A DNA stretch of 56,496 bases from positions 1-56,496 of the forward strand of contig JAHQVY010000298.1 in the NCBI GenBank assembly GCA_019634095.1. The letters run 5' to 3'. Source of the stretch: Cellvibrionaceae bacterium. GTDB lineage: Bacteria; Pseudomonadota; Gammaproteobacteria; Pseudomonadales; Cellvibrionaceae. Position 1 is the stretch's first letter, and every line of letters starts with the position of its first letter. Shown here one piece after another: positions 10,533 to 39,748 of this stretch. The notes below the pieces were generated by a model that did no database searches, was not told where the DNA came from, and worked only from the letters and a program-made list of their open reading frames with translations. The position numbers were made by a program, and so were the translations under genes.

Positions 10533-11498
10533 TCACGAAACAAGCCAGGTGGTCAATTGGCTTTCCAATTTAGAAACCCACTCAATATCTTTGCCAAACT
10601 GGTTTATAACCTCAATTTTTTTTGATGAAGAATTTTTATTCAGCAAATAAGACACTGATGTAGAAAGGGTTCCCGAAGGCCCTACATCGATATAAATATG
10701 GCTTCCAGATTTTTCGATTTTGTTGACTGCATTCATAAGATTAACGGGCTCACGAATTACTCGCCAAAAATATTCCTCAGAATATTCTTCTATTTTTGAA
10801 GATTCAACAGAAGAATAAACCGGATATCTAGGCCGCCTAAAGTTTAGTGAACAACATAACCTTTTTAGCTCCTCGGAAACATTCTCCAACACTTCCGAGT
10901 GAAATCCATACTTCACAGAAAGCCTATGTGTCAGAACATTTCTGGATTCTAAAAAGTGCTGCAACCTTAAAACATCGTCTAATAGACCACTAACCACAAA
11001 ATTATTTTCGAAATTTCTACCCGAAACCGTACAATTAGCAAACGCTTCGGAATAACTATTAATAATGTTTTCACTATCAACAATAGCAAGCATGGCCCCA
11101 ATAGGGCAACTTTCCTCCAGCGTTCTAGCTACATCAACAGCGAAAACTAACCCCTCCTCTATTGTCAAGGCATCGGAAACAACTGCCGCTGTCATTTCTC
11201 CAAGACTATAACCTAACAAGCAATCGGGTAATATTCTCTTTTCAATCAGCATTCGTGACAAGCTATATTCGATTGATAATAGCGCCGGGTTTGAATGCAA
11301 AATCCGATCAAATTTTTCACTTTTTTCGTTTCGATAATAGATAATATCAACTAGTGATTCGCCAATTAAGTCTTCCACAATTTTTGAACAAAAATTCATC
11401 CATAAGCGAAATCTCGGATTATTTTCAAAAAGCTCCCGCCCCATTTGAAAGTACTGAGAGCCTTGCCCAGAAAACATAAAAACAATTGGCATACTCAT
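10533..11498 (-). CDS. Discrete acyltransferase-family protein, probable acyl hydrolase of a trans-AT PKS
   Basis: The 321-residue single-domain AT fold has the FSGQGSQ opening, the nucleophile motif GYSLGE near residue 97, and an active-site histidine in YGFHSEV. Malonyl-specific enzymes usually carry GHSLGE and AFHS. Deviations at both sites, and its pairing with a second AT, resemble the PedC-type acyl hydrolases that clear stalled chains from carrier proteins in trans-AT systems. A second transferase with another substrate is the alternative. Its ATG overlaps the stop of the upstream acyltransferase by four bases (ATGA), so the two are translationally coupled. The gene is visibly more AT-rich than the synthase genes and is the last of the operon. 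No convincing terminator follows. Confidence 0.8.
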   Translation of the reverse strand: MSMPIVFMFSGQGSQYFQMGRELFENNPRFRLWMNFCSKIVEDLIGESLVDIIYYRNEKSEKFDRILHSNPALLSIEYSLSRMLIEKRILPDCLLGYSLGEMTAAVVSDALTIEEGLVFAVDVARTLEESCPIGAMLAIVDSENIINSYSEAFANCTVSGRNFENNFVVSGLLDDVLRLQHFLESRNVLTHRLSVKYGFHSEVLENVSEELKRLCCSLNFRRPRYPVYSSVESSKIEEYSEEYFWRVIREPVNLMNAVNKIEKSGSHIYIDVGPSGTLSTSVSYLLNKNSSSKKIEVINQFGKDIEWVSKLESQLTTWLVS

Positions 11499-12730
11499 AT
11501 TTTTTTATGCACCGGCGTCAATTCATCCAAATCAAAATAGCCTTTATAACCTTCCATATATACCGCTGCTCGATGTCCAAACAAAATGATGGCTTGTGTC
11601 CGAGTTTTCAACTCACCATAGTCTTTCATTGTTGATTTCACGACTGATCCAACAGGCAGAGAGCTGTTCCATTTTTTCACTTTCTCATTAGCTGTCTCGG
11701 ATTGAGGCTGTATAGTAGATGCGCTCATCCACTCTTGAATCTTTTCCACCTGGGCGATAGAACCCGAAGCTTTCTCAAACTTTTTTTCTGAATCAGTGTG
11801 ATCGCTAGAGCCAGTAGCGCTACCAGAATATTTTTGAGAAGAGTCCATGCGGATAGTTACTTGCCCGCTCGACACTTGATTTGTATAGTCTTCTTCAAGG
11901 TGAGCTATCATCTTACTTAAGACTTCGCCATTACCAACCTCTTCAAAAGACATTGAGGGTGACAACTTCATAAGATAAAAAATACTTTCATACCAGCGAA
12001 CACCGCTCGAAAGCTGGCTCGACAAATTTTCCACAACACAACCAGGCTCATAAGGTTGGGCGGTAACATTTGAGATCACCTTAGTACACGGATCGTTAAA
12101 CGAAAACTCATTCAAGTATTTTTTGAATTCTTCCCGCGCTGGCTTCATAAATCTGGAATGGAAAGCACCACTGGTATTGAGAGGGTAATATAGTGTCTGA
12201 CCTTCTTGAAAGAAAGCTTGTGCTTGACTTATCTGCTCAGCATCTCCAGAAATAACAATTTGCGATAACGTATTATAGTTTGCCAAGTCAATTTCTAGTA
12301 AATTATTCTTTTCCAATGTTATTTCAATTTCTTCCTTAGAAGAATTCAAAATTGCAGCCATTGCTCCTTTGGGCGCCTTACTCATTAGCTCGCCACGTTT
12401 TTTTACGAGCTTAAGCCCTGTTTCAAAATCAAAACACTCAGCAGCAAGAAGAGCGTTATACTCACCAAGACTATGGCCCGCGAAATAATCTGGCTTTTCA
12501 ACAATCGATTCTAGTTTTTCATAGTATGAAAGAGCATTAACGACATACAAAGCAGGTTGCGTATATTCTGTTTTATTGAGATTCCCATTAGGATTATTTA
12601 AACAAACATCCTCGATCGAATAACCTAAAATATTGTTTGATTTTTCCATTAAACCTGGATATTTCTTAAATAATTCCGCACCCATACCCTTACTTTGGGA
12701 ACCTTGACCTGGAAATACAATAGTTTTCAT
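11495..12730 (-). CDS. Discrete malonyl-CoA acyltransferase (trans-AT)
   Basis: The 411-residue product begins IVFPGQGSQSKGMGAEL, has the nucleophile motif AGHSLGE near residue 88, and has GAFHSRFM near residue 190, the signature of malonyl-specific transferases. After the catalytic fold comes a C-terminal extension of about 110 residues, ending VLFGHRAAVYMEGYKGYFDL-like, that I know from stand-alone trans-AT proteins. It should load malonyl units onto the carrier proteins of the AT-less modules encoded upstream. The start has a strong AGGAG seven bases before the ATG. It lies 260 bases after the end of the giant synthase gene on the same strand and is coupled to the next gene. The base composition is much more AT-rich than the large synthase, hinting at a separate origin. 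Confidence 0.93.
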   Translation of the reverse strand: MKTIVFPGQGSQSKGMGAELFKKYPGLMEKSNNILGYSIEDVCLNNPNGNLNKTEYTQPALYVVNALSYYEKLESIVEKPDYFAGHSLGEYNALLAAECFDFETGLKLVKKRGELMSKAPKGAMAAILNSSKEEIEITLEKNNLLEIDLANYNTLSQIVISGDAEQISQAQAFFQEGQTLYYPLNTSGAFHSRFMKPAREEFKKYLNEFSFNDPCTKVISNVTAQPYEPGCVVENLSSQLSSGVRWYESIFYLMKLSPSMSFEEVGNGEVLSKMIAHLEEDYTNQVSSGQVTIRMDSSQKYSGSATGSSDHTDSEKKFEKASGSIAQVEKIQEWMSASTIQPQSETANEKVKKWNSSLPVGSVVKSTMKDYGELKTRTQAIILFGHRAAVYMEGYKGYFDLDELTPVHKKI

Positions 12731-12989: not shown

Positions 12990-15900
12990 TCAGGCCAAAT
13001 CGACGCCGGTTACAGGTGTCATTTGGACGAATTCGCCATTCATTCCAGGCACTTCCCTTGCATAGAGTTGTTTACAATGGCGAACGATCTCTTCAACAGA
13101 ACGAGGCTCAACTAACATCGCCATATGGCTGCTGGAATCAATATCGAACAATTGAAAATCCGGTAATAATTTCTGCCAGGTTTCAACATAAGCTCCCACT
13201 TTAAGTGGAATATTTTCATCCGGGCTGCCAAAATAGGCCTGCAAATTCCCTGAAAACAACCCTTTCTGATTGCGCAGAAAATAACAGCGTACTTCATCGG
13301 GCTTGAGCAGGGGTTTGAGTGTATAGCGGGATATTTGGTACGCAACTTGAACGTTAACCACTTTAGTGATCAGCGCCTCCAGCTTGCTTGCAGACAATTT
13401 CACTCCGCGCTTTTTGGCCTTGTCGATCAGAGCGGCTAAAAAGCTGTTATCGTCCAGGCTGAAGTCCAAATCATCCCAACGTATGCCCACTTGCTCCATT
13501 CGCTCGGGCGCGGTTGCAACCGTTGACAATAAAAATAAATTGGCCGCTTGCAGCGCAAGGGTTTTCTGCGAGCGCACATTGACAGCCTGTAAACCGCTGT
13601 CATCCAGGCTATCAATCATGACAACACTGCGCACCTTCTCGCCTGAATTTTGCAATTGGCGTATGACTTCATAGGCGATCAAACCACCGAGGGAAAAGCC
13701 ACCCAGGTCATAGGGGCCGTTTGCCATTACGGCACGAATTTGGGCGATGTAGTGCGTGGCCATCGCCGCAATACCTTCGATCGGTTCCTCGTCCGTCATC
13801 CAGCCCCGGGCTTGAATACCATAGAAGGGTCGCTCACATTGCGCCGCGATCGAGCGATAACTTTCGACGCCCCCTAAACCACCGTGAAACCAAAACACCG
13901 GCCTACCTGTTTTTACATTATTCAAATGCTGGCGCACACCCTGATCAATGGCGGACGGCCCTTTGTTTTTTCCGACGCTGAGTCGATTCAATAGCTGTTG
14001 CACACTTTGTTCGGGAAACGCCAGCATGGATTTAAGGCAGGCAATCAGATTCGCGCTCATTTCTTTCACGATCTCGGGCGCTAACAGCGATTTGCGGTAG
14101 GCAATAATCAAATACATTTTTCCGTCAGCGTGAACCAATTGATAGAAAAGGCCGGCCACACCAGACCAACCCTCGGCACTTTGATTTGAATGCGCGACGA
14201 TGTATTGCACCCAATCCATATAGAGCGATCGACCCCAGTTGGCTGAGGATTGCAGCGTTCCAGAATCGATGTCACTGACGTTAATCAGCACATTTTGGCT
14301 GCTGGAGCCGAAATATTCCAGGTGATCGAGACCGGCACAGTCGAGCAAGTCTGCAAGTCGGATTTTGCCGTGCGCTAGGTGTTGCCGTGTTTCCCGAGCA
14401 ATGCGTTGAATAAGTCCAGGCAGCATCTCGTCTGTACTAATACTGAGTGGAAAGAACAATGGTTGACTAAAATCGCCCGCGGTATTTTTCAGTGCCACCC
14501 TATCCCTGTGCTGATTCATAAAATGTAACAGCGCACTGCGATTGCCATAAATTTGGGTCAGTAAAATACCGACCGCTGCTGTAAACAATTGGCTTAACGT
14601 CGCTTCATGCTTTTGCCCAAACGCAAAAACTTGCTGAACCAGGACTTCGGGAAACGTCTCCAGTTGCACAGCGACCGCTGCACTTCGCTTGTTGGATGAC
14701 GCGTTATCGGGTTGCCCGGATTGCGTCCTCGGCAATTGCAGTGCGTTTTTAGAAGCCGCTCCTTGCAAAACTTTATCCCAGTACTGCAGTACCGGTGCAG
14801 AACGATATTCCGCATCGTTGAATTGGCGCAAACTGTAATGCCAGTATTGTTCCTTCAACTCGAGTGAAGTGGAATTATTCTGGCCTTTCCCGAGATTGTG
14901 ATAGCGCTTCATTAACTCGGATAAAAGCATTGTGCTAGTAAAGGCATCCGCCAGGCAGTGGTGCATAACAAAGCCCAGGTAATATTTGGCCTCAACGGTA
15001 CAACACCAAAGCTGCATCACCGGCAAACAATCCAGCGGCAGCAGTCGATTGCGCTGCTCCGATATGAAGTTAAAAAAATCATTCAGTTGTTCAAATGCAA
15101 GGGCTTGGATGATATCGCCTTCTATGTGTCTGGATGCGACCTCCTCTGATGCACCCTCTTCTATCCGCGGCGCGATCACTTGCACCCAGGATGACCCTGA
15201 GCGCAAGAACACCGATCTCAACAAGTCGTGATTATTCAACACGGCATTCATCGCCCGATTCAAACGCGCAAGGTCGAGCGTCTTTTCTTTAAGTTCATAC
15301 ACATGTTGCACATTCCAGGCGTACTCCCCCATCACCTCCGAGTGGTACAGGCTGCGATATTGTTCCTGGGATACGGGTGCAATTAGCTGCTTCAGCGGCA
15401 AACCTTCGAGCAACGCACGCGGCTCAGCCTCAGACATGGATTTCAAGGCAGCAGCAATATCCCGCGAGCGATGGGCAACAAAATGACAGCGTTGACCATC
15501 GTGATAGAACGCAATCCCCTGCTCAAGTAGGTCGGTCAGGGCCGGTGAGGCGACATAAGTGGTTGCGTGATCCGCCGTGCCAGCCTCAACACTCACACTG
15601 TAGAGCGCCTCGGGCAGGCTCCCCCACGGACTCTGTTCCGATGAATCCAAGCCCAGCGACTTCCGTTGTTTCGGGTCGAGCCCAGCCTTATCTAGCCAGC
15701 TCGGCACGTCTGCCTCTGCCAGGTTTTTGCGAATCCAATTCTCCAGCAGGCCAACCGTATTGTGTTCAGCCAGCTCTACAATGGTCAGGGACAATTTGAA
15801 GCGCTCGTTGACCTCAGCCACCAAACGCATGCTCATCAGCGAGTCCAGGCCGTATTGATTGAGGGGGGTTGAAAGATCGATTTGCGACGCCTCATAGCCG

Positions 15901-18900
15901 GTAATGCCTGCAATGATTGAGCAAAGGACTTGCTGCGGTTCGCCTATGGGGGACATCGATCCCGCCGCGGCTTTGTGGTCAGACTGCTCACGTCGGCGCC
16001 GCGCCGCGCGAGGCACATCGGTGGTGTCCACCCGGCAAAATCGTTGTTCGAAAGGGTAGGTTGGTAGCGGCATCGGGCGCTTTTCCGCCTCGCTGTATCC
16101 TTCCCCATGGGCAGTGAGGCTGGCGCCGTTCACCCAACTTTCTGCCAGGGGCTTCAGCGCTTCCAAGGACCAGGGGCGTGGCGGCATTTTTTGCCCTTGC
16201 GACGAAATCTTTGGCGGCAAGGTTGCGCCGTGTTGAGTTGCTACGAGCCCTCGATACACACGGCTAAGCCCCAGGTCAAATCCATGGGGCCTGTCCTCTG
16301 TCAAGATGTTACGCAAGGCGCTCCTCAAGGAGTCGAGGCTGCTCGCCACCAATGCGATACGATATGCAAACGCACTTCGTCGCAACAACAGATTCGCCGA
16401 TAACTGATAAAGCCGTTGCGAGCGCCAATCTCCCCCATCGACGTCCACAACGGAGAGCAAGTCTGCACAGCGCTGTCGCAGCGCGGTGGGCGATTTCGCC
16501 GAGAGGCAAATCAAATATGCCGATGGCTGATCATCGTCCTCGCTGAGCGCGCTCTTCTCGTCTGCCACGTCGCTATCGCGCTCAGGGTAATCCGAGAGCA
16601 CAACGTGGACATTTATCCCGGTGGCACCAAAGGAGTTGATCGCCGCGCGCCGCGGGCGCCCTCCTCTATTTTTCGGCCAGGCTCTGTTTTGCCGCACCAC
16701 AAAAAAAGGCGACGTGTCTATATCAAAAGCCGGGTTGATACGGCTGATATTGGGCGTGCCGGGAATTTCCTGGTTTTCCAGCGACAATAGCACCTTAAAT
16801 AAATGATTCATTCCCGATGCTTGAAAAGCATGACCGACGTTATTTTCCACCGTACCGAGGGCGCAATAGCCCACCTTGTCGGTAAAGCGGCGAAAGGCCT
16901 CGCGCAGGGCTTGCACCTCGGTGACGTCCCCTAGGCGAGTACCATTTGCATTCGCCTCCACCATATCAATGGACTCCGGGTCAATTTGACAGCGCTGGTA
17001 AATCTCGCTGATCAATGCCGTGCGCGCACGCACGCTGGGCGCAGCCATACCATTTGTTCGCCCGTTGTGGTTATTGCCCCAGGCATCGACGACCGCATAA
17101 ATCCGATCGCCCTCCGCCAGCGCTTTGTCCAGGGATTTGAGTACCACCACCCCTACGGCCTCCCCCGGCACCATACCCGCGGCGCGCTCATCCAGCGCAG
17201 CCGGTTGCAAGGCGGGGGTAAACAATTGCTGGGCACTGCCCGCCAGTAGGAGATTGGCCGTATTGTTCACCAGTACCCCCCCCGCCAATGCAGCCTCGCA
17301 GCGTCCCGAGGCGATGTGGTCACAGGCCTGGGAAAACGCCAGCAAGGAAGAAGCGCAGGCAGCGTCGACGGAAACAACCGGGCCGGTTAAATTCAGGCTG
17401 TAAGCAACTCGCCCAGCGAGGGCGGATTGAGTCACATGGGGTGAGATCCCGGTAGCATCTCTCAGTAACAGCGTGTAATCGCTGCCGCCGCCGCAAAATA
17501 CCCCCCAGGCTTGACCGGAAAGCTGAAGAGGATCAACACCGGCATGCTCCAATGCCTTCCAAGCTTCCTGTAAATGCAGTCGTTCGGCATTGTCCATCCA
17601 TTCCGCTTCATTGATGGAGAGCTGGAAAAACGCCGGATCAAACCCATCGATATCATCAAGGAAGGCACCGCCACCCGGAACAACATGATTTGCCTGCGTA
17701 TTGCTGGCAAGCTGCAAGTCTTCCATACGCCACAGTCGCTGCGCGCTCACTTCAGACCCGACGGCGCTGCGGCCCGCCTTCAGGAGTTGCCAAAACGCCT
17801 CCGGGGTCTGCGCCCCTGGAAAACGACCGGAGTAGCCGATAATGGCAACAGCGCTTGTCGAATCCCCGGGTTTACTTGTTGGTTTGGCGCTGGTCTTATC
17901 CCTTGGCATTGGGCTTAACACCGCTGCCTTCGGCGCTTCAATTTCTCGCATCAGCCTATCTGCCAACTGGCGAGCGGCGGCAATGTTGGACATGGCCTCG
18001 AAGTGATTGCTGCCTTCGATAATGCCGGTTTTACAGTTGGGCAACAGCGTTTTCCAGGGGCGTAGAAAGGGCGCCAGGGAACCCCGACTCGCTTCGACCC
18101 GGCGCAGGTAGTCCGGGGTGTAGACTTCATTCGAATGGGCGCGGGCACTTTCTGTTTGCATCAACAGGGCATCAAGCACGTTTTCGCTGCCCTCGGGCCA
18201 GGGCTTTGGCCGGTAGGCACAGAGCGCGTGCAAATTGCCAAGGTGCACCGCCGACATTGCGCGCAAGCGCGGTATAAGGTGTTCATCGTCCTGATCCACC
18301 CCCCGAGCACGGATCACCTTCGCCAGTGCTCGCAGGTTTTCCAACTCGTTTCCCAGCGTGCCCGCTGGCTTCCAATCCAAGGCCTTTTTGCGGATTTCCA
18401 GCTCCGACCACCGAATCAAACCCGCCTGCTTCTTGCGCCGAAATTCCGGGTCACCATGCAGTAGCGATATCAGGAGAAAATTGGCGTTCATCAGCCAGTT
18501 TTGTATGGGGTCTGTGCGCCACACAGCCTCGTCTTCCTCACTGCAGATCAGCGGCGCCTCCAGCAAGCGAAGTGTGATGCGAAAATGACCCGATGGGCCC
18601 GGCGTTTGGTGAGCAAGACAAAGCTGCCGAGCAGTCTCGTAAGCAACCGCGCCACCCATCGAAGCGCCGAGAAAATGGTATTCCCCATTGTCCACCACTT
18701 TTGCTATCACAGCGGCAAAGTGCCGTGCCATTGCCTCAACACAGTCGAGGGGTGTCGCATCGTCAAGCATGCCCCTGGCTTTCAGGCCCAACACCCGACA
18801 GCGACCGGCAAAGGCGTCGGCCAGTTTTTGATACACGCCCACGTCGCCGGACATGGGATGAAAACAGAAAACAATGGGACCATCGCCGTGGGTTTGCAGA

Positions 18901-21900
18901 GGCACGACTTCCGGGTGCTCTGCTATCAGCGCCCGTAGCGTTTTGCGAAGCGCCTGAGGCTTGGCGGGTTCAGGAGGATTGACGGAAACCCCTTTGTTTT
19001 CGGCAAGGTATTTCGCAAGATCGGAGATGGATGGATAATCGAAAACCAGGGTTTCCTGTAGGGGCATTGACAAGCGCTCCCCCAGTTTCTGCACGAAACG
19101 CGCTGCCGTCACCGAATCGAGGCCGAGATCGGCAAAAAGGGTCTCGCTTGTCACTTCTTCGTCGTCTTCCAGCAACAGGATGCTTCTGATCTCCCTGTGC
19201 AACAAGGATTCCAGCGCTTCGAGCGCGTCACTCGCGGGTTCCTTTTGCACGGCACGACTTACCCCAAGCGAGGGCGTGGGTGAAGGGGTAGCCGCGGGCG
19301 GGTGCCAGAACTTGCGCTTTTCAAAAGGGTAAGTGGGCAACGCACAGCGACCAGGCGTTTCACTGTAGAGCGCCCTCCAATCAATATCATCCACCCCCTG
19401 AACCCAGAATTTGGCCAGCCCTACTAGGTCTTGTTGAATGAGCAACTCGGCGATTTGCGCCTGGATTTCAGCAAAGGAGGTGTGTTTTTTCAACGCGGAC
19501 AACGCATCCCTCTTGCCCATGATGATGCTCTCTCCGTTGGCTCCGTCGCGCCATCGATAGGCTGCCAGTTCCCGCTGCAGTTGAGCCCGGTTTGCGGCGA
19601 TTATCGCGACGCGGTAGCGCAGGGGTTGCCGACCACATTGCAAGGTTACGGCGATACGATCCAGATTGTCGCTGCCGGGACTACTCAGATAATTTGAGAG
19701 TTGTTTGACTTGCTGATCCAATTGAGATTGGGTGCGGGCAGACAGTAAAAACCCACGCGTTTTGTCTGTGTCGACGCTTCGCGTTGCTGTTTCCCGGGGC
19801 TGCGCCGCAAAGGCCTCCACCACCATAGCCGCGGAAGTGCCCCCCGCACCAAAGGAGGTGATCAATGCGCGCGACGCGGTATCTTGCTTCTCAGCCCAAT
19901 CTTGCCCCTGGTTCAAAACGCGAAACGGCTTAAGCCCTTGAATGTCGCCCCCTTCATCCCCCGTGTTGATTGATAAAGTGGGTGCCAGGCGCCGGTGGCG
20001 AAACTGGCACAAGACCTTGACCAACTGGGAAAAACCGGACGCCGCTTCCAGGTGGCCAATATTGGGTTTGACACTGCCCAGCACGATTGACCCCGCCGGA
20101 CGCGCTCGAAATACCCGGTTGAGCGCTTGCAACTCAACCGCATCGCCAACGGCCGAACCGTTGGCCGCAGCCTCGATTAAATCAATATCCTCGCCGTTGC
20201 TGCCCGCCCGAGCCAATACCGCGTTGATCAGCCGACTATGTTGAGTCACATCCGGTGCGGAATAACTGAGAGTGCGTCCCGTGTGCGCCACTTTTGTAGC
20301 GCGGATCACACCATAAACATGATCACCTTGGGCGAGCGCGTCGGCCAGGGGTTTAAGGCAGGCTACCGCCACGCCCTCTCCCGGGATAAAGCCGGATCCA
20401 TTCTCTGAGAAACACGCGATTTCGGGTTTATCGCTCAACAATTTGTTGCGGCACAGGTCGATATAGTTGCGCGGATGCAAATACAAATTGACTGCACCGG
20501 CCAGAGCGAGACGGCATTCCCCGCGATAGATGTGCTCGCACGCTTCATGCAGCGCCGTTAAAGACGAGGAGCACATGGTATCGATGGCCATGCTCGGGCC
20601 CTGCAAATCCAGTTGCCAGGAAATACGATTGGCCATGGAACTGAAAGAAGCTTGCGGTAAGTGACCTTCTCCCGCGCTGCTTTGGGCGGCGGTAAGATTG
20701 AAGCCCTGTTTGGTCACGCCGATGAAAACACCGACGGAAGAATCATACTGCTCACGCAGCGCCTGGCGGTTGTAACCGGCGTCTTCCATGGCGCGCCAAC
20801 TGTGGGTCAGTAAAAGGCGTTCCTGGGGGTCGATCTGATACGCGTCCGCCGGTGAAATGTTAAAAAACAAGGGGTCAAATTCATCGAAGCTTTCAAGGAA
20901 GCCTCCTCGTCGGCAATAGCTTTTCGCCTTCTCGAGCGCGATGGTGATATCAGGCTCGTAAAAATCCGTCATCGCCCAACGTGTCGAGGGAATGTCGCTG
21001 ATGCTGCGTCTGCCCTGGTACAGATTGTCCCAGAAATGCGAGAAGTCATCGGCACCCGGGAATGCGACACTCAGCCCCACTATTGCAATGCCTTTTTCGC
21101 GAGCGGCATCCGGCTCAGCTGTGGCGTGGAGAGTGGCGGGCTCGAGGGTGGCGGGCTGGAGAGTGGCGGCCTGAAAATTGGCGCATTGCTGAACGGGAGC
21201 CGGACTGCTCGCGTGCAGGGCTTGATTCTCGATGGAGCTGACCGACCGGCTGGCTTGCCTGGTGCCCGCTTCCATCCCGTTCCCGCTGTACTGGGGGGGG
21301 GCCAGCCACTGCGCGCAGGCCTCGGGCCAGGTGTCAGCGAGGTATACAGCCACGTCCCCAAGGCGATTGTGCTCGTAAAACAAGGTTGCCGGCACCTCGG
21401 GCAAGTGCTTGGCAAGTCGCTGGTGCACGCGCCGCAACAAAATCGAATCCACCCCATACGCATCGAGGGGCTCATCGCAGTCGATTTGTTCCCGATTCAG
21501 TTCGGTCGCTTCGGCAAACCAGTCGAGCAATCGGGCTCGACATTGGACTTCCAAACTGGCTTTGGCTTTCTCGTCGCCTTGCGGTGCCTGGGTGCCGTTA
21601 GACTCGCGTTGCCACTTCGTCGAGGTATCGTCTTGTACAGCGAGGGCCAGGGGTTCCCGCGCCATGCGGGCAGAAAGCCAGGACCGCAAACGCGTACCAT
21701 CACCCGCCAGAATTAATGCGCTTTCCAGGTTGTGCATACACGTCTGGTGAAACACCCTCAGGCCCGTTTCTGTTTCCAGACTTTCGATCCCCTTCTTCTG
21801 CCACAGGGTTTGGTTTGCACCACTGCTTTCCATTCCGCCATCTCGCCACAGCGGCCAATTCAGGGATAGGCTGTGGCCGCGCCGCTGGCCCTGGGCAACT

Positions 21901-24900
21901 AAATCATTGCGGTAAACGGCAAATTGATCCAAAAAGGCATTGGCCGTTGCGTAATCCGCCTGGCCTGGGTTCCCCAGGGCCCCGGCAACCGACGAAAACA
22001 GGGCGAAGAAATCGAGATCCATCCCTTTGGTGGCGAGATCGAGATTCAATGTGCCTGAAACCTTGGGAGCCAAAACCCGCTGCAAACCGGCCTCGGTCTT
22101 GTTCACAAGCAAACCATCATCGAGGATGCCCGCGCAGTGAATCACCGCGCTGAAATCTCCTGAATCCTGCTGCAGTGTCTTAATTTCTTTGCTCAACGCG
22201 TTGAAATCCGTCACATCGAGCTGGCGATACAAGGCCTTTACCCCGCTGTCGCCGGCATGGCGCAGAAGTTCGCTATCCGCGCTGTTCAGGCTGCGACGAC
22301 CGAAAATAACCAGGGTAAGCTCCACGCGCAACTCGATCATATCGCCAAGCAGCGCTCGACCAAGCCCCCCCATGCCACCGGTAAGAAGATAAACGCCACC
22401 CGCCTTCCAAACCGCATGCTGGGGCGCCTCGTCCGCCTTGAACTCCCGCCAGTGCGACACAAGGCGCCGATCTTGCTGGTAGCGCACATGAAAATGTCGC
22501 GAATGCTGGTATTCAAGGATTAACTGCCCTGCCAGCATGTTCGTCCCAAGATCAAGCTCCGCCTCAACAAGCTGACAATGTAAACCGGCGTGTTCGTGCT
22601 CAGCGGTTTGCAATAGCCCGCCGAGCGCGGCCATAAGACGACCTTGTTCATCGCCCGCAATCACCACTTGTAAGCTGATTCGCTTCGACGGGTCTTTATC
22701 GATAGCGCGGACCAGATGTTGTAAAAACGCCAGACTCTGCGCGCTGTAATCCTGCACGCGCCGGTCAATGTCTTCGTGGCTGGAACACAGGCGTCTGACC
22801 TGCTCGTCCGCCAGACCCATCCCGGCCGCCAGGCTCGCCTCCTCTTCCAGCAGCCGCTGGCAAATCAGCACGTTGTGGGTCTCGCCTGGTTTTTTATGGC
22901 GGATCTCGCCTAGCTTTGCGACGACGTCATGGGCAGCCTCCAGCGGAATATTTTCCGCGTGCCAAGTACGCGTAAACAGCAAGGCGTTCTGCCCCGGGCT
23001 GGCGTCACTGGCGGCCTCCGCAACAATATTCTCAGCAATCCAATACTGATCTCTTTCGAAGGGATAGCCCGGCAAATGTAGCCGGCGCGCCGCCATGGCC
23101 TGCCCCCAGCCTGACCAGTCGAAGGTATAGCCTTGAACATACAACTCCGCCAGCGCGTTCAGGGTCTGTTGGTAGCGCAGGGGCTCGCCGGTGTATTCGA
23201 CCAAGGCCTCTGCAAGAGAATCAGCGAATTCCTGTGTAACTGTTTGGGCAACAAAGCCCTTGCGCACACGGTTTTCAAATGCATCGAGCTGCGGCGCTTG
23301 TTGGTTTAGGCGCTGCTTCAATGCCACTAATGCCTGCGCTGTGTTCTCCACCACGAGGGCGATGCGGTGCTCGAAATGTTGCCGACCTTGCGCCAGGGTG
23401 TAAGCCACATGGGTCAAGCTCTGCTTGCTCTTCCGCTCAAGGTACTGCTGCGTCTGACGCAACTTTTCCTGCAAAGCGGACGCTGTCTTCGCGGAAAACA
23501 GCAGCAAGTGGCTCGGTGGGACATGTTCAGCGGCCTCAGGCAGAGAGCCGGAAGCCTGAGAGCATCCCGCTTGATGTTCCACATACTCTTCAACCACCAC
23601 ATGGGCATTGGTACCGCTCATACCAAAGGCGCTAAGCGCGCCGATACGACGCCCGCCGTTGGACGCCGGCTCCAGCCATGGGCGGGTTGCGGTATTGATG
23701 TAGAAGGGACTGTTGAGCCAATCAATACCCTCATTCAAACGGGAAACATGCAAACTGGCGGGGATGGTCCGCTGCCGGATGGCTTGCACCATACTGACTA
23801 GACTGACCAGCCCGGAAGCGGCAAAACTGTGGCCGAAATTCGTTTTGGTCGATGTCAACGCGCAATAGCCAAGCCGATCGGAGCGTGCTTTGAATAAGCT
23901 ATCCAAGGCATTCAGTTCCACCGCATCCCCCAGCGAAGTGCCGGTTCCATGAGCAATCAGGTATTCCACGTCGGCAGCATCGACCCCGGATTGTTGGTAG
24001 ACCCGGTTGATCAGCTGTTTTTGCGAGCGGCCACTCGGGGCGGTGATTCCGTTGGTTTTGCCGTCGTAATTAATGCCGCTGCCGCGAATCAATGCGTAGA
24101 TGGGGTCACCGTCGCGCTCTGCCTGCTCCCGCGTTTTCAGAACCAGGGCAACGGCAGCTTCGCCCGGCACCAGGCCGTTGGCACGCTGGTCGAAGGCAAA
24201 GCATTTTCCCTGCGGCGACAGCATTCCCGCCCGGGTTAAAGCAATGTAGGAATCCGCTGTGAGAATAAGATTAGCTGAGACGGTTAGAGCAGTTTCACAC
24301 TCGCCCAAGCGCAAACTGTTGCAAGCCTGGTGCAAGGCCACCAGGCCAGATGAACAGGCCGTATTGACGGTCAGAACGGGGCCGGACAGATTGAGGAAAT
24401 AACCCAGTCGCGCCGCCAATACGCCATCGTGGTTGGCCGTGACGTTGTCGTTATTGGGCAAAAGGCGTTGATAATCGCCCTGCTCAACTCCGGCGAAAAT
24501 ACCGATCGTGCTGTTTTTCAGTTGCACCGCGCCGTAACCTGCGTCTTCCAGTGCATTCCAGGCTTCCTGCAGCAACAGCCGCTGACGGGGGTCCATGTAC
24601 CTAGCGTCGAGGGGGGTGATGTCGAAAAATCGTGGGTCGAACTCTTTCACTCCCGGCACGGCCCCGCACCACTTGCTGCCAATCACCCGCTCGTCATTCC
24701 CTGTCTCATCTACGCGATAGTATTGCCGCCAATTGAATCGTTCCGCGGGGATTTCAGCTACAGCGTCCTTTCCTTCCACAAGCATCTGCCACAGGCCATC
24801 CACATCCCGCGCACCGGCAAAGCGTCCGCTCATGCCAACGATGGCAATCGCTTCCGGTTCCGAGCCGGTGCTCCGCGCGGTTTTGACGGACGACCTGTCC

Positions 24901-27900
24901 GATAAGGTGGGCACAGAGGGAGAGGATTCTCGTTTAGGTTTGGCTTGGGAAAAAGGGGCGTGGTTTTTCTGAGGGTTCTCTGCTGAGGTTCCTGCTGGTG
25001 GGTATCCTGGATGTCCCCCAATTTCAGGATGTCCCCCAATTTCACGCCTTTCGTGCTGAATTTCGTCGTTGCCCCGTCTTTCCTCCCGTCTTTCCCGGCT
25101 ATCCTCGTAGCAAGCGAGCAAAGCATCGGCATGTTGTGCCAGCAGGTGCTCGCTTAAGGTCCGAATGCTCGGACAATCAAAAAAAACGGCCGGTTGCAGG
25201 GTTATCCCGTAGTGCCGGGATAGAGCGCTGGCCAATTGCGTCAAGCTGACTGACTCGAATCCAAAATCAGCAAAACTCTGATTGGCATCCTGCTGCGCGC
25301 CTGGAAGCTTCAAAATCTTTTCGATGTACAGGCGGATATCGCGACTCACCTGTTCTGCCAACGCCCCCGCCGTCATCGCTTTTCCATTTTGTGTCGGAGA
25401 TGCTGTCTGTGCCGGGGCTAAAGGCCGCAACAGCGGTGCCGACGATAGGTTTGCCTCGGCTGGATTGAGCATACGCTCCAGTTGCGACTGCTGGCCTTTG
25501 AGTATCAGGGCGTGGCCGCCACTCCCTTGCAGCAGACGCGAAAAGCACGCAACCCCCTCCGCCTCGCCAAGCAGGCGCTGACCACTCGATTTGAGGTAAA
25601 ACTGCGTTTGTTGTGGATGCGAGAACTGCATGCCACCGCCTTCCCAAAGCGGCCAATTGATGGCGAGGTAGCGACACTTGCGGGCATGCTGAGCGCGGTA
25701 GGTCGCGTAGGCCATTTGAAAGCGATTGCCGATGGCGTAATCACACGAGCCAAAGTCCCCCAGAACCGCTGCCTGGGAGGAAAAATAGCAAACAAAATCC
25801 AGCGGCTCGGAACTTAACACATCCTCCAGCAACAGGGTTCCGTCAATTTTGGGGCCGAGCACAGACTGTATATCGACCATGCTTTTTTCAAGAAGGCTGC
25901 GACGGTCCCCGACCCCGGCGGCGTGGATGACGCCGTGGATCTGTCCAAAGCGGGACCTCGCTTCAGCCAGTGCGCCGACCATCGCCTCCCGGTCACACAG
26001 GTCCACGGGTAAGTACAGCGCTCGAGTGCCGAGGGTTTGCAAGCGTTGTTGTTTTTCCCGATCCAGCTCCGAGCGACCCGTTAATATCAGGTTTACCTCC
26101 GCCGTGGCCAGATAGCGGGCGAAAACCCAACCCAGTTCACCTAAGCCACCGGTAATAAGGTAGGTTCCACCTTGCTTAATCGGCACCTCATCCCTGCCCT
26201 CGGCAAAGGGTAGTGACTGCTGTTCACGCAGTAGCTCATGGCGTTGGTTGCCGCGGTACAAGCTACTGTGCAGTGTTTGCGCCGACATTTCCCGCAGTAA
26301 GCCCGGGATGACCTCGTCCAGTGCGAGATTCTCCGCGTCCGCGATAGCCGACTCGAAAAAACAACCTGCCAGCGACATATCGGGGCAGATTTTTTTTAGG
26401 GAAGGACTCAATGCCAACCAGGCGTCTGGATAGCAGCGTGCCCTCGTGCGCGGATAGGATGCAGCCAGCAGCAAGCGGAAATCGCGCCATGGAGTGGCAT
26501 CCAGGCATTGTATTAGCGTCAACAGGTTCGCAACGTCCTCCAAAAACCTTTGGTCTTGCAGGGGCCACAGGTAAAAAATCCCCTGTATCTGCTCAAGCCC
26601 GCTGCGAATGTTGCCGAAGAGGCTGGCAAAACCGGCTGCGTCCAACGACTCCAGGTAATAGACCTTCTCTGGCGAAAGTGAAACATTCGCCTTGCCCCCC
26701 AGGTTATTCTGGGCAATAAACACCAGTGTGGTATGGGGAAACTGCGCGCGAAATGCGGCGGCAAACCGCTCTTGCTCGTGACGGCCACTTAAAAAACACA
26801 GCACGGCCTGAAACGGTTGTTCAGCGGGTAAGGCAGTCTCGCAAGGCCGCCACACTTCCTGGTAGCAATACAGCTCTCCCTCCGGGTTTGCTTGCCTCGG
26901 TGTGCTCCCTTCCAGAGGACAGGGAGAGCCGGCGTCAATCCGGCCGGAGTCGCTCTGCTCCGGAACGGCGCCAGCAACCTGAGGCAAATCCGGCCAGTAT
27001 CGTTGCGCTAAAAACGGATAGCCAGGCAGGGGGATACGCCTGCAGGGCGCCGCAGCCCGAAGGGCGAACCAATTGACGGTTTCACCTTGTACCCAGGCGG
27101 TCACGGCGTTTTCCAGAACCCTAGCGTCGAGTGAACCCTTATCCACGGGCGGCGCCACCTGCCCGGTGACGAAAACCCCGGGTTCGCTCACCTGCAACTC
27201 GCCGTCCGGGTCATTCCGGTAAGCCCGCTGAAATGCTTGTAATTTGCTCCTCAGCTCCAGCAGCGTTGCAGCGATCACAGCCAGTCGCCAAGCCATGGCT
27301 TCCCGCCCCTCCTGAAGGGTGAAGGCAACATCGCTCTCCCGCAGGGGCTCGCGATCAGCGCGGTGTAGAAAACGGCAAAACTGCTGCGTCACACAGTGCA
27401 AACGCTCCGCTGAGCGCGCGGAAAAAACAAAGGCATAGCGTTGTTGCGCGGGCCCATTGATAAGGTCCTGCTTATCGAGCGCGCCCCGCTTGTTGTGCTC
27501 TGGCGGCGCGAGGTCTTGCCGCTCTTCGATGGAGCCTGGCCACTCTTCGATAATGATGTGCGCATTAGCGCCGCCCGCGCCGAAAGAAGAAATGCCCGCG
27601 CGCCGCGGGTATGTCACTGTCTCGGCTCCGGTTGTGACACAAGGCCGGGGCCAGGGCGCAAGGGCCTTTTGTAAAACAAAAGGCGAATGGACGAAATCAA
27701 TGTTCGGGTTAGAGGTCTCCGCGTGCAAAGACGGCGCAAGTTGTTGGTGCTGGAGTTGCAAAAGTACCTTGGTCATCGCCGCGACCCCGGAAGCACTTTC
27801 GCAGTGGCCGATATTGGACTTGATCGAGCCGATGGCACAATACTGCTTGTCCGCACTTTGCTGTTCAAATGCGCGACACAGTGCGCTCATTTCCACGGGG

Positions 27901-30900
27901 TCGCCCAGCTCGGTACCCGTGCCATGGGCCTCCAGGTAACTGATACTGCGCGCCTGAATCCCGGCATTTTCCAATGCCTGGGTGATCACCGCGGCCTGCG
28001 CTTTGGGGTTGGGCACGGTGAAACCACTGGCCTTGCCACCGTGGTTGATTGCGGAACCGCGGATAATTCCGAGGATATTGTCACCGTCCGCCAGCGCGGC
28101 GCGCAGCGGTTTTAGCAGAAACGCGCCGACCCCCTCGCCCGGCACGTAACCGTCTCCACCTTTGCCAAAACTCTTGCAACGCCCGTCACTGGCGGCAAAC
28201 TGCCCCTGGGAGAGCATAAGATATTTGTTGGGATGCAAGGAAAGGTTCACCCCGCCGGCCAAGGCGTACTTGCATTCCCCCCGGAGCAAACTCTGGCAGG
28301 CAAGGTGCACCGCGGTGAGCGATGAGGAGCACATGGTATCCAGCGCCATGCTGGGGCCCTCGAAGCCCCAATAGTAGGAGACCCGATTGGCAATCGAAGC
28401 CGCGCTGCCGTTCAAGGCCCTGGGTGTGCCAAGCGCATCGGCTTGCGCACCGTAAAGCTGATATTCCAGATACATCGCGCCGACAAATACACCCACTTGG
28501 CTGCCGAGGCGTTCGCGAGTATACGCGGCGTGCTCTATGGCATGGTATGCACTCTGTAAAAACAGGCGTTCCTGGGGGTCCATACATTCCGCTTGGCGCG
28601 GTGAAATGGCAAAAAACTGCGGATCAAAATGATCCACATTACGCACAAAGCCCCCCCAACGGGCGTTGGTTTTTCCTTCTTTTCCCTTGTCTGGGTGGAA
28701 ATAGCGGCGGTGGTCCCAACGCGCTGCTGGAATTTCCTCGATACAGTCTTGCGCGTTTTGCAATCGCGACCACAATTCGTCTACATCATCGGCTTGCGCA
28801 TAGCGGCCGCTCATACCAATAATCGCGATGGCGTTAGCGGGTCGCTCCCTAAGTGACGTTAAATCGGGAGCTTCTGCGCCTCGGGCCGATGAGCCTGGCG
28901 CGCTCGATCTGCCTGCAGGCATACCTTCCGTATGGAGGTCGGGAGCCAGGTGAGGTTCCGGATCGGAAGACGCCGCCTCGGCATCCACTGCATTGGCGAC
29001 TGCGTCCTGGGCAAAGGCCTGAGCGTGGGAACGACAGAGATAGTCGGCCAGTTGCTGAAAAGTGTTGTGTTCGAACAACAGGGTTTTCGGCAGGTTGCCC
29101 AGCTTCTGTTCCAAGGCGTGGGTAATGTCCATCATGGTGATGGAATCAATAGAGTAATTTTCCCAGGAAGCGTCCGGAAGAATGGCCTCGGCCTGGACAT
29201 TCAGCAAGCCCGCCAACAGATCCCGTAAATAGCTTTCCACCGGTGTGCGTACGAGCCCACTATCCAAACCCAAACCGTCCATCCCGGCCTTGTGCGGATG
29301 CGCTTGCACATCCTCGGCTTTGTGCTGCACGCGGTTGATGTGCCGGGAAAAGGCCGCTGACTCGCCGGCAAACACCAACACCTGCGGGGACTTGCGTTCC
29401 GCCAGTGCCCACTCAAAAGCGGCCACACCCTCTGCGATCGGCAACACACTCATGCCGGTTTCCACACGCAGACGCTCGGCCACGGAAGCGTCCACCCCGA
29501 GCCCGAGGGGCCATGCTGGCCAGTTGAGTGACAAACTATAACCCTGGCGCTGCCCCTTTTCCACGCGCTGTTGACGCCGCAGGGCAAACTGATCCAATAC
29601 CGCGTTGCCATAGGCGTAATCACTCTGCCCCAGGTTGCCCATCACCGACGCCAGAGAGGAAAACACGACAAAAAAAGCCAGTTCATCGCGAGCGGTCAGC
29701 ATATCGAGATGATTCGCGCCCAGACATTTGGGCTTGAGAACGGCGTCGATCTCGACCGGGGTTTTGTGTACCAATAAGCTGTCCCGGATGTGCGCGGCGC
29801 TGTGGATCACCCCCTTGATCGGGCCGTGGCGCTCGCGAATCTGCTCAAGTGCACTCTCTAGCTGGTTAACATCACACACGTCCGCCTGGATGTATTCGAC
29901 GCTTCCGCCCTGTCCGGGCTGTATCAGGTTTTTTATCCAACGCTGCAAATCCGTCGACGCCGTCGAACGGCCCAGAAGAACAACTCGGGCCTGATACTCA
30001 CGATAGAGATATTCGGCAAACACCCGCGCCAATCCGCCGTTTCCCCCGCTGATCATCACCGGGCTGTTCACCAACCGGCTGCGCTGCGCGATGGGCAGCT
30101 TGCCAGCCGCGCTAGCTTTACTCGCGTCCAGGCGCTGATATTGCGCGCAATAACGCTGGCCATCGCCGCGGTAGTAAATGTGATACGGTCGTTTTACCTG
30201 GCGCCACTCGCTGCAAATCCGCTTCACCAGTGTTTGTGCTCGTTCAGCGGGAGAAAGGGGCGGCAACACTACTTCCAGCAGTTGGCATTGGCGCCGGTTA
30301 TCCTCTTTGTTTTGCGTCTTAAACAAGGCCACCAGCGCGGCGATCCCAGGTGCCATTGGCGTGGATTCAGACACGCGGGCCACTGCCAGCGTAAGATCCA
30401 CCACGGCACCTTCCGCGGCGATGCTTATGGCCTGGCTGAGACAAACCAGACTGCGAAAGTTAGCGTCAAAGTCATGGGGCAATAGTGGGGCTTGGGATCG
30501 CGGTTCGGTAGCTGACACAGCCGGTCTATCAAAAAGTGGATTATCAAAAAGTGGACGACCAAAAGCCGGAGTGTAGAGTACGGTGAAAGCATTCAGGTCG
30601 AATTCAGTACTCTTCAGCGCCAGAAACAAGCTTTGGTAATCACTGACGCGCCCGGGGTTGAGTGAGAAACCGCCATTTGGCAAGCGAGCAAAGTCCGCAC
30701 CTGGCTCTGCGACACATAGCTGTTGCTGCCCCAACTGCTGCGCCAACAGGGCTCTCAAAGGACTATCCTCCTGATCAAACAATAAAACCGAGGTTGGCAA
30801 CGCCGGCGTGACACTATCGCTCAGCGGCTGCGGTTGCAGTATCGGGATGAAGTAAGTCGCAGCGCCTTGAGGTTCGCTCACAAAGTTTTCCTGCGCGCTG

Positions 30901-33900
30901 GCTGACGCCATATTCTGAGCGCGCTTTACCCGCAGCCCCAGCACCCGGGCAACCGGCCTACCCTCGTTATCGGTCAGCGTCAAGTCATAGGCTCGCTCAT
31001 CGCTTTGCGCGCTCTCCGTCGCTGACTGCGCCAACACCCAGGCCCTCCGCGGAAGCGCTGCGTAAAGCTCTAGCGCTTGCACCCCAACAGGCAGATAGGG
31101 CGTTTTTTCCTCTTGGGGCAATAACATGGCAATCACTTGCAAGGCGCTATCGAGAATACCCGGGTGAAGCACAAACCCTTCGTGTTCCGGCTCATCGGTC
31201 ACCAGTTCTAGGCGGCCCAATGCCCGCTCTCCCCGGCTGTGTGCCTCGGTTAGCGCCTGAAAGCGGGGGCCGGTTGTGACACCGCGCTGCCGATAGAAAG
31301 TGCGGAATGAGTCACCACTAAAATAGTGATATCCGGCTTGCCCGCTGAGGGCATCGCGCTCCGCCGCGATGTTGAGCTGGGGTGGAGCAGCGGGATAAGC
31401 TGCAGCCAGCTCCAATCGTCCCTGGGCCAACATCTGGACAGCTTGCCCCCCCTGAAAAGTAAAACTCCAGGCCCCGCTGGTGGTATCGGACTGCAGTCGT
31501 ATCGACACGCTTTGGGCTTGCTCACCAATAACGAAAGGGCGCTGCCAAGACACATCCCGCAGGGCGACCACCCGCTTGTTCCTCGTGCCTTTGGTGGCGG
31601 ATGGGACGACCCGCTCACCGGCTGCCCGAGCCATCTCCAGGTAGGCCGTGGCGGGCATCACTTTTTGCTGGTTGACCTGATGTTCCTGAAAGATAAATTC
31701 GTCGCCGCCAAAGTCTGTGCTGAACGAGCACTCCCCCGGGCTGGCGTCGGCGTTTCGCCGCTGTATCAGGCTGTGCAGGTTCTGTGATGGCGCTTTTGGA
31801 TGGCGCTCCCGGGCCTCCACCCAATACCGCGTGCGCGAAAAAGCATAGGTCGGTAAGCGCAAGCAGGTTCGATGCTTGACCTGACTTTGAGTGAATTGCA
31901 GCCAGTCAATATCGACACCGGCACTGTAAAGGCGGGCAAGCAAGGCCAGATAGCTGCGCCAATCTCGACAGAACTCGGCGTTGTGGTGCACGCGCTCGGT
32001 TTGATCCCCGCAGGCCACCAGAATGGCGTCTGGCTCAGCCTGCCAGTGGGTCTGCGGATAATCGACAAACAGAATCTTGTATTCCCCGTCGTGCTGGCCC
32101 GCCACCAGGTCTTTGGGCCAGGCCCCTTCACGGGCATGCAACAAAGCCTCGCCCAAGGACCAATGCCCGGCAATACACCGGGCCGGGAAAATACCTTCTG
32201 CCTGCACCGCCAGTCCGGTGGGTCGAAGGTTAAGCGCAAGCCACATTCGGGCAAGAGCATACTGCCAGATAAACGTGCGAGCGTAGCCGGGAATGCAGTC
32301 TTTCGTCGCGTCGCCCTGATGGGTGGTATCTTCCTCGGAGAGGTGACTTTCCATTTCCCTCAGTGCGGCCAAACAGGCGTCCACTGCCTCGCGAAATGCC
32401 ACCTGGTGAGCATAAAGTTGGCGAAAGAAGGGTTCTGGCCCCTGCGACTCACCGGGGAAGAGAAGCAGTGTCGAACAGGGGCGGGTTTGCCGGTAAACAC
32501 CTTCGCCATGCCTAGCTGCCCCGGCTTGCTCCTCCTGCTTTGCGGGTTCGCTGCCAGCCGGGTCGGCAAGTTGACGAAGCTGATGTTCCAATGTCTCCCG
32601 GGAAGCGGCCACCAGCGCACAGCGCCGGGAAAAGTGGTTGCGCCCTCGATTCAGCGTGAAGCAAAAGTCTTCGATTTTCGTCCCGGGGTTGTGCTGCAAG
32701 TGGTCGGCATAGCGCTCCGCCAAACCAAGCAGGGCATCATCGGACTTGGCAGAAAAAGCCAGAAGGTGACAGGTGGGTGCCTCGGCCCTGGGTAAAGCCG
32801 GGGTGGAGGAGCCCACAGACATCGACGCCTGCAGCGCCGGAGCCTGTTCCAGAATGACATGCGCATTGGTGCCGTTAAGGCCAAATGCGCTGATCGCGGC
32901 GAAACGAGGTGATGACGAATGCCAGGGTTCAGGCTTAGTGTTGATGTGTATATTGGCGTCCGCCCAATCAATATGCTCATTGGGCTTTTCGAAATTCAGG
33001 GTCGGCGGGATAAGCTTGTGATGCAGTGTCAGCGACGCCTTGATCAGCCCGGCAATTCCCGCCGCGCCCTCAAGGTGGCCGATATTGGTTTTGACTGCGC
33101 CCACATATAGCGGGGAATCCGCCCGGCGCCCTGCCCCGTAAACGGCTTTCAAGGCAGCAAATTCAATGGGGTCACCGATGGGTGTACCGGTACCGTGGGC
33201 CTCCACATATCCCACTTTGGCCGCCGTAAGATGGGCGTTTTCCAGCGCGGCACGCATGACTCTCTGCTGTGCCATACCGTTGGGAACCGTCAGGCTGCTG
33301 GTCGCGCCGTCCTGGTTCACCGCGCTGCCGCGAATCAGGGCGAGAATATTATCGCGGTCGGCAATCGCATCGGACAAACGCTTTAACACCACCAAGCCGG
33401 CCCCTTCGCCGCGTACAAAGCCATCCGCGCGATTATCAAAGGCCGAACAGCGTCCACTGCGCGATAGCATGTGTGCTCTGCAATAACTAATACTGAACTC
33501 TGGAGTTAAAATGCTGTGGGTGCCGCCGGCCAGGGCAATATCACTCTCGCCATTGCGCAGGCTTTGTGTTGCCAGATGCACCGAAACCAGCGATGAGGCA
33601 CAAGCAGCATCCACCGCGATACCCGGCCCGTGTAAACCGAGAAAATGCGCGATCCGCCCCGGAGTGAGGCTGTGGTAATTGCCAATTCCCATATAGGCAC
33701 CAATTGCCTCAGCGGGTCGCGCCATCAGTTCAAGCATGTAGTCACAACCAAACATGCCAATGAACACACCGCAACGAGCCGACGCGAGACTGCCTGGCGC
33801 ACAGGCCGCGTTTTCCAGGGCTTCCCACGCGGTTTCCAAAATCAGGCGCTGCTGTGGATCGACAGACACAGCCTCACGGCTGGAGATATTAAAAAAAGCC

Positions 33901-39747: not shown

Positions 39748-39748
39748 G

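What the first reader, a model, noticed from the sequence alone, without database searches (positions are those of the whole stretch)
12990..21100. Unusual release end: KS0-ACP-TE followed by KS0-ACP-C-TE
Both last KS domains lack the first catalytic His (AANGS, NANGT), so neither should elongate. Each is followed by its own ACP and thioesterase, and a condensation domain with an HHxxxD motif stands just before the final TE. An internal TE that does not end the line, plus a C domain between ACP and TE, suggests ester or amide formation with a second chain or partner, stepwise transfer, or oligomerisation before release.
Basis: partly seen in the sequence, partly recalled or inferred. Interest (0 to 1): 0.85.

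Follow-up and report, generated by a model that had tools for sequence, protein, structure and literature searches.

The report
Polyketide line with three finishing domains
A giant bacterial enzyme that builds a small-molecule natural product ends in an odd string of parts; most of the string matches known enzymes in which the inner 'release' domain probably decorates the growing chain rather than ending it, but an extra release domain at the very end looks new.

Summary
The end of a 7069-aa trans-AT polyketide synthase (window 12990-34199, minus strand) reads KS0-ACP-TE1-KS0-ACP-C-TE2, at the stated coordinates; 2 of the line's 7 KS lack the first catalytic His.

Most of the array is of a known kind. 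KS0-ACP-TE1-KS0-ACP-C aligns end to end with a gene on an Ensifer canadensis plasmid; the two KS0 pair one to one. TE1 has Glu where release TEs have Asp, and its nearest solved structure is the oocydin 'branching' thioesterase. In a genome of the same family such a TE stands before a KS with complete catalytic residues, so it does not end that line. The C domain groups with C domains that end PKS proteins; in oocydin the C domain is essential (PMC4552970).

Found nowhere else in my samples: a bacillaene-like TE (TE2) fused behind that C domain. Best reading: TE1 tailors the bound chain (Z double bond, or else an O-acyl branch); C, TE2 or both form the closing ester and release. Oligomerisation is unsupported. 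New variant of a known kind.

The parts
46606..50850 (-). P0004: loading protein, AMP-ligase (FAAL-like)-KR-ACP
   Evidence: FAAL label from NCBIfam matches that are below their cut-offs
39749..46558 (-). P0003: KS-DH-KR-cMT-ACP
34204..39816 (-). P0002: KS-DH-ER-KR-ACP
21093..34199 (-). P0001 upstream part: KS-DH-KR-ACP / KS-KR-ACP / KS-KR-ACP; last KR reads ILDD (B-type motif)
   Evidence: KR typing from the recalled LDD rule
19800..21092 (-). KS0a, non-elongating ketosynthase (AANGS)
   Evidence: pairs with Ensifer KS0a 100/100
18975..19187 (-). ACP4
17937..18920 (-). TE1, internal thioesterase-fold domain, Ser-Glu-His
16590..17852 (-). KS0b, non-elongating ketosynthase (NANGT)
   Evidence: pairs with Ensifer KS0b 100/100
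15732..15932 (-). ACP5
15387..15731 (-). segment between ACP5 and C, alignable with Ensifer
13992..15386 (-). C domain, HHCLADA, groups with C domains that end PKS proteins
13071..13904 (-). TE2, canonical Ser-Asp-His thioesterase, 42% identical to a Bacillus velezensis PKS TE taken for BaeR
11495..12730 (-). trans-acting acyltransferase 1 (FabD-like, GHSLGE)
10533..11498 (-). trans-acting acyltransferase 2 (GYSLGE)

Best explanation
This is the finishing end of a small trans-AT polyketide line (five KS with complete HGTGT). After the last elongation the chain should carry beta-hydroxyls at C3 and C5 (two KR-only modules). KS0a moves it to ACP4, where TE1 works on the bound chain instead of releasing it: most likely it removes the 3-hydroxyl to leave a Z-2-enoyl chain, as published for the internal TE of FR901464; next likely, it O-acylates a hydroxyl, as published for oocydin. 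KS0b passes the processed chain to ACP5. The C domain, of the PKS-terminal type, then joins the C1 acyl to a hydroxyl (lactone or ester), and TE2 is a second, bacillaene-type release enzyme that either closes or hydrolyses the chain, or frees chains that C cannot close. A Z-2-ene with a 5-hydroxyl would suit an unsaturated six-membered lactone. Shown: domain order, lost KS residues, intact or altered active sites, homology, recurrence of the array. Inferred: every chemical step, and the split of work between C and TE2.
For: Colinear homologous array in Ensifer canadensis pT173a (KS0a and KS0b pair 100/100). There it lies in the gene next to a C-A-PCP module whose A domain reads as Thr by eye, with an FkbH-like sequence by eye and HMGS, enoyl-CoA hydratase and P450 genes, a set that fits FR901464/spliceostatin (recalled). 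The catalytic acid is Glu in the 4 TEs taken as internal and in 0 of the 9 others (Asp in 7 of the 9, two are misaligned by a column). Best fold match is 7r0x, the branching TE of oocydin, Z 25.0 over 275 residues, tied with 9f7b, a gladiolin TE, Z 24.8. G002: the same kind of TE (39% identity, E 2.4e-54) stands between an ACP and a KS with HGTGT and NIGH. [quoted passage not shown] C clade 100/99 with the G348 and G002 C domains; in G348 that C ends its PKS protein and the four following ORFs that I checked hold no TE. The OocS C-domain Asp mutant and the TE Ser mutant both lose oocydin A (PMC4552970 section 8). TE2 has Ser-Asp-His and is 42.0% identical over 288 columns to the B. velezensis TE.
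Against: OocS TE fell with release TEs, not with TE1, in the best tree (90/88); one Glu clade is not rejected (p-AU 0.19) but not shown either. TE1+Ensifer+G002 has only 64/76 support. A sequence search put OocS TE nearer to TE2 (72.9 bits) than to TE1 (54.9 bits). The G002 TE has HG like release TEs, not HP. The last KS of G348, in the KS0b clade, keeps its first His (HAAGM), so that clade is not wholly made of KS0. In Ensifer the C domain is followed by an NRPS gene that brings its own HHxxxDG C domain, so there the C is probably not a release domain. The FR901464 and OocS sequences could not be obtained apart from the 7r0x fragment. No product is known. The TE1 model is of middling quality (pLDDT 65).
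Confidence: 0.5

Rival explanations
1. TE1 is an oocydin-type branching thioesterase: it puts an acyl group on a hydroxyl of the bound chain, KS0b accepts the O-acylated chain, and C or TE2 closes the ring with the other hydroxyl.
For: Nearest solved structure is the oocydin branching TE; Ser-Glu-His and HP in place of HG shared with it; titles of the two Angew 2022 papers name modular acylation and branching acylation (seen in reference lists). OocS also has a C domain in the same protein as its TE. X. cannabis spliceostatins carry two distinct acyl esters at C18 (PMC7930024).
Against: Only 27.1% identity to OocS TE against 41.1% to Ensifer TE1; no common clade shown; the related G002 TE has HG.
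Confidence: 0.35
2. C is a leftover or structural domain and TE2 alone releases the chain (hydrolysis or lactonisation).
For: TE2 has a complete triad and lies at the very end; C has lost the Gly of HHxxxDG, and C and TE2 share a lower GC than KS0a, TE1 and KS0b, which fits a recent exchange of the end.
Against: His-His-Asp kept; the OocS C domain is needed; Ensifer C also has HHxxxDA, so the Gly loss is shared and not simple decay.
Confidence: 0.2
3. One reading: C joins two chains or a chain and a partner (ester or amide) and TE2 releases a dimer or macrodiolide.
For: C followed by TE on one protein with no A-PCP leaves the acceptor unnamed; two hydroxyls are expected on the chain.
Against: No second carrier for an acceptor chain between C and the stop; terminal C domains in lasonolide and palmerolide are proposed to cyclise and release one chain (PMC9600693; PMC8739492).
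Confidence: 0.1
4. Assembly artefact: a contig join put TE2 behind C.
For: The window is one contig of a 370-contig draft, 68% complete; GC is lower from C onward.
Against: ORF stays open through the junction, and the TE2 lead-in (TGRPVFWFHGG) aligns with that of other PKS TEs; the GC change begins at the start of C, not at the C-TE2 junction.
Confidence: 0.04

Closest known systems
Oocydin PKS OocS (Serratia), TE and NRPS-C domains
   Same: A TE with Ser-Glu-His (7r0x fragment) and a C domain with HHFHADG in the last PKS protein; both needed for product (PMC4552970)
   Different: No TE behind the C domain is mentioned in the section read, which does not state the order of the two; OocS TE does not group clearly with TE1; full OocS sequence not seen
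Ensifer canadensis pT173a PKS (WP_203528975.1), FR901464/spliceostatin-like by gene content
   Same: KS0-ACP-ACP-TE1-KS0-ACP-C, alignable end to end; TE1 41% identical; both KS0 pair in trees
   Different: Tandem ACP; protein ends after C; next gene is C-A(Thr by eye)-PCP-PKS
FR901464 internal thioesterase (He 2014)
   Same: TE-mediated cis double bond from a B-type alcohol (PMC5331325); TE followed by a transferring KS (recalled)
   Different: Sequence not compared; the link is through Ensifer gene content and recall of the paper title
Terminal C domains of trans-AT PKS (lasonolide LasO, phormidolide, basiliskamide, palmerolide; here G348)
   Same: C domain at the end of the line, proposed to cyclise and release
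   Different: Here a complete TE follows; only G348 was compared by sequence
Bacillaene BaeR terminal TE
   Same: TE2 42% identical to a B. velezensis PKS TE taken for BaeR, Ser-Asp-His, HG
   Different: In BaeR the TE closes a line without a C domain before it (recalled)

Membership tests
Oocydin-type branching TE (TE_B) | Nearest structural and sequence relative in PDB is 7r0x | tested here: met
   E 1.1e-31, next 6.9e-17; Z 25.0; 9f7b 24.8 is tied
Oocydin-type branching TE (TE_B) | Glu in place of catalytic Asp | tested here: met
   that this marks the group is my inference from 4 sequences
Oocydin-type branching TE (TE_B) | Forms a clade with OocS TE | tested here: inconclusive
   (p-AU 0.19)
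Oocydin-type branching TE (TE_B) | O-acylates an ACP-bound chain | not testable with these tools
   Needs assay
FR901464-type cis-olefin-forming TE | Lies between KS0-ACP and a KS, after a B-type KR | tested here: met
FR901464-type cis-olefin-forming TE | Orthologous to the FR901464 TE | not tested
   Sequence not obtained; Ensifer used as a stand-in
PKS-terminal C domain | HHxxxD present, follows KS-ACP | tested here: met
PKS-terminal C domain | Groups with a C that ends a PKS, apart from other C domains | tested here: met
   100/99 with the G348 and G002 C domains, each last in its PKS protein
PKS-terminal C domain | Is the last domain of the line | tested here: not met
   TE2 follows
Canonical PKS release TE (BaeR type) | Ser-Asp-His and high identity to BaeR TE | tested here: met
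   (TE2 only)
Canonical PKS release TE (BaeR type) | TE1 belongs to it | tested here: not met
   Glu for Asp; TE1-type plus window TE2 as one clade rejected, p-AU 0.001
Non-elongating KS (KS0) | Loss of first His with Cys kept | tested here: met
   2 of the line's 7 KS

The most novel reading that the evidence does not exclude
C and TE2 act one after the other on one product: C makes an ester between the ACP5-bound chain and a hydroxyl of a second chain or partner that stays tethered, and TE2 then closes it into a macrodiolide or frees a depsi-product, so that a PKS end holds an ester-forming module without any A or PCP domain.
Probability: 0.12. Interest if true: 0.75.

Novelty: new variant of a known kind. 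Interest (0 to 1): 0.45.

Why it matters
It ties one finishing cassette (KS0-ACP-TE1-KS0-ACP-C) to lines in distant bacteria and suggests simple marks (Glu for Asp, position before a KS) to tell tailoring TEs from release TEs, which Pfam names alike. The C-TE2 end lets one ask, in one protein, which of two release enzymes closes a chain, and whether a terminal C domain makes esters.

Tried and rejected
Searches with the C domain: 20 of 58 relatives at E<=1e-3, own genome included, and 5 of 390 genomes of the order at E<=1e-13, own included; of the foreign C domains put in the tree only those of G002, G348 and Ensifer's first gene grouped with the window's. The genome-contig scan with the TE1 alignment chose poor patterns and gave 6 loci with generic TEs; 5 of the 6 (L021, near copy of L020, left out) served as outgroup or filler rows, labelled NRPS-type by me without reading their context. 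Class-wide search with TE1: 1 of 369 genomes at E<=1e-20, the own one. Class-wide search with the OocS TE fragment: 25 of 369 at E<=1e-12, own included, mostly matches to the first third or half only; the longest foreign one (G488) has Asp and is taken for a release TE. C domain in the order that holds G666: 0 of 394, which shows nothing by itself, as the tool says. Family of G348: 1 of 22, G348 itself. Genus of G002: 1 of 3, G002 itself. Plasmids with the C-TE2 query: 220 of 72,556 records match, 0 cover 80% of it, 15 of the 220 listed. Phages with TE1: no match. So a C-TE2 fusion was seen nowhere else within these samples; that is no proof that none exists. I first took TE1 for the FR901464 TE, then for oocydin TE_B; trees do not settle it, so both stay. 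Rejected: TE1 as an ordinary release domain; the two KS0 as recent copies of one another (they fall in different clades). In the C tree 11 of 16 fetched loci gave a row; L001, L007, L011, L013 and L014 gave none under my motif and length filter. In the KS trees the B. velezensis and B. glumae proteins gave no row.

Papers: all ten searches used. I read section 8 of PMC4552970 whole; passages only of PMC5331325, PMC7930024, PMC11260071, PMC10204066, PMC9600693, PMC8739492 and other parts of PMC4552970. The two Angew 2022 oocydin papers and PMC3493953 are not held; what I say of the content of the Angew papers rests on recall, their titles in reference lists and the PDB title. He 2014 was seen only as a citation without title; its title is recalled.
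Full report
What is there. The window is one whole contig (C272) of a draft genome of 3.39 Mb in 370 contigs, 68% complete. One of the genomes counted as the same class has a MukB 64% identical to that of E. coli, which fits Gammaproteobacteria. On the minus strand lie four PKS genes: P0004 AMP-ligase-KR-ACP, P0003 KS-DH-KR-cMT-ACP, P0002 KS-DH-ER-KR-ACP and P0001 with five further KS, then two free acyltransferases. Pfam finds no AT domain in the PKS proteins, so this is a trans-AT line. Five of its seven KS have the full HGTGT motif and two are KS0.

The observation. The last two KS read AANGS and NANGT; all seven keep the Cys and the second His. The C domain has HHCLADA. TE1 has Ser, Glu and His, TE2 Ser, Asp and His in the three catalytic columns.

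The same array elsewhere. A protein search of plasmid records with the C-TE2 part gave, among the 15 of 220 records listed, one C match far better than the others: Ensifer canadensis pT173a, E 2e-47. That gene (L018 6417-21491) reads, in its second half, KR-ACP, KS0 (AANGS), two ACP, TE, KS0 (NASGS), ACP, C, and stops. A global alignment runs through the whole array. In a KS tree window KS0a pairs with Ensifer KS0a and window KS0b with Ensifer KS0b, each at 100/100. TE1 finds that gene and no other full-length partner among plasmids: 1 of 88 matching records covers 80%. The neighbouring Ensifer gene opens with C-A-PCP; by eye its A domain reads D F W N I G M V H, which is the threonine code as I recall it. 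The cluster also has an HMGS-family gene, an enoyl-CoA hydratase, a P450 and an FAD oxidoreductase. That set fits FR901464/spliceostatin, which uses threonine after a short Z-enoyl side chain (recalled). I take this as likely, not shown.

TE1 is not an ordinary release domain. A profile of the two TE1 domains matches PDB 7r0x over nearly its full length at E 1.1e-31, the next entry at 6.9e-17. The structural second look names 7r0x 'Structure of the branching thioesterase from oocydin biosynthesis' (Z 25.0) and 9f7b, the gladiolin GbnD6 TE (Z 24.8; tied). In an alignment of 13 TEs the acid is Glu in window TE1, Ensifer TE1, the G002 internal TE and OocS, and not Glu in the other 9 (Asp in 7; two are off by a column). 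G002, a genome of the same family, holds such a TE (39% identity to TE1, E 2.4e-54) in a 4390-aa protein: KS (HGAGS, second His lost)-ACP-TE-KS, and the KS behind the TE has Cys, HGTGT and NIGH. A TE that stands before a KS able to elongate should not be the end of that line. Window KS0b, Ensifer KS0b and the last KS of G348 form a clade with that G002 KS (100/99); in trans-AT lines KS clades follow the chemistry of the incoming chain (established rule, recalled), so these KS may see chains of a like kind. The G348 KS keeps its first His (HAAGM), so it cannot be called a KS0 by that mark, and no TE stands before it.

Which tailoring reaction? [quoted passage not shown]) and O-acylation in oocydin (titles in reference lists; PDB title). 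For the first: TE1 is nearer to the Ensifer TE (41.1%) than to OocS (27.1%), the last KR has a B-type motif, and no DH lies in the last two elongating modules. For the second: the Glu, the HP pair (not shared by G002) and the structure match. Trees do not decide: OocS falls with release TEs at 90/88, but a clade of all four Glu-type TEs is not rejected (p-AU 0.19), whereas TE1-type plus window TE2 is (p-AU 0.001). Against both, OocS TE finds window TE2 with more bits than TE1 (72.9 against 54.9). I put the olefin first and the acyl branch second, by a small margin.

The C domain. In a tree with 11 C domains from fetched loci and the Ensifer Thr-module C, window C and Ensifer C group with two others, L005 (G002) and L015 (G348), at 100/99, and the split holds after the two longest branches are left out. 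The other nine loci in the tree I take for NRPS C domains without having annotated them. In G348 the protein ends KS-ACP-C; the four following ORFs that I scanned are an RPE65-like protein, a peptidase, a P450 and a free ketosynthase, with no TE. In G002 the protein ends KS0 (SASNGS)-ACP-C. G348's motif HHFHADG is the one mutated in OocS (to HHFHAAG): that mutant and the TE Ser mutant both made no oocydin A (PMC4552970 section 8). Terminal C domains are proposed as cyclising and releasing domains in lasonolide (PMC9600693) and palmerolide, with basiliskamide and phormidolide named as precedents (PMC8739492). So C here is best read as ester-forming. Against this, in Ensifer an NRPS gene with its own complete C domain follows.

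TE2. It is 42.0% identical to the TE of a Bacillus velezensis PKS gene that lies next to a P450 gene, which I take for BaeR-BaeS of bacillaene (recalled), and 41.1% to a Burkholderia glumae TE. Its triad is complete. A C domain followed by such a TE was not found in the plasmid records (0 of 220 matches cover 80%) nor in the same protein behind any of the three related C domains I read (Ensifer, G002, G348). GC is 0.57-0.58 in KS0a, TE1 and KS0b and 0.47-0.50 in C, linker and TE2 (the two short ACPs give 0.51-0.53), which hints that C and TE2 came or drifted together; it does not mark the C-TE2 junction.

Model and verdict. KS0a to ACP4; TE1 tailors the bound chain; KS0b passes it to ACP5; C, TE2 or both close an ester and release. 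A chain with a Z-2-ene and a 5-hydroxyl would give an unsaturated six-membered lactone. That product is a prediction only. I rate it a new variant of a known kind, interest 0.45.

Noticed in passing
window 10533-11498 (-): The second free acyltransferase has GYSLGE where acyltransferases have GHSxGE (recalled rule); it may be an editing hydrolase or use another acyl unit, perhaps the donor side of an acyl branch.
   Followed up: no
window 46606-50850 (-): The loading protein joins an AMP-ligase to a KR before its ACP, and its first 199 residues have no Pfam match at E 0.01; the KR lacks the LDD motif.
   Followed up: no
window 39749-39816: The listed start of P0002 overlaps the end of P0003 by 68 bases; the true start is probably further in.
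   Followed up: no
window 53267-56496 and 9240-10049: Transposase and integrase pieces (IS1595, rve, DDE_3; a weak below-cut-off REP-associated transposase match) flank the PKS genes. P0001-P0003 have GC mostly 0.52-0.60, the loading gene about 0.46-0.47, the flanks 0.38-0.54.
   Followed up: partly
window 51191-52417 (-): A Rieske-domain gene lies directly upstream of the PKS genes and may tailor the product.
   Followed up: no
G002:C1:74001-123786 (L048-L050): Large trans-AT cluster with an internal Glu-type TE, three KS with a lost catalytic His, and a loading protein (MaoC-SDR, weak NIF match) whose first KS pairs with that of the Ensifer gene (100/99); two of its KS (G002c_KS1, G002d_KS2) are nearly alike, perhaps a recent duplication.
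   Followed up: partly
   Followed up: partly
L019 12001-12939: The Burkholderia glumae plasmid TE has Cys in place of the catalytic Ser (GFCLGG).
   Followed up: no
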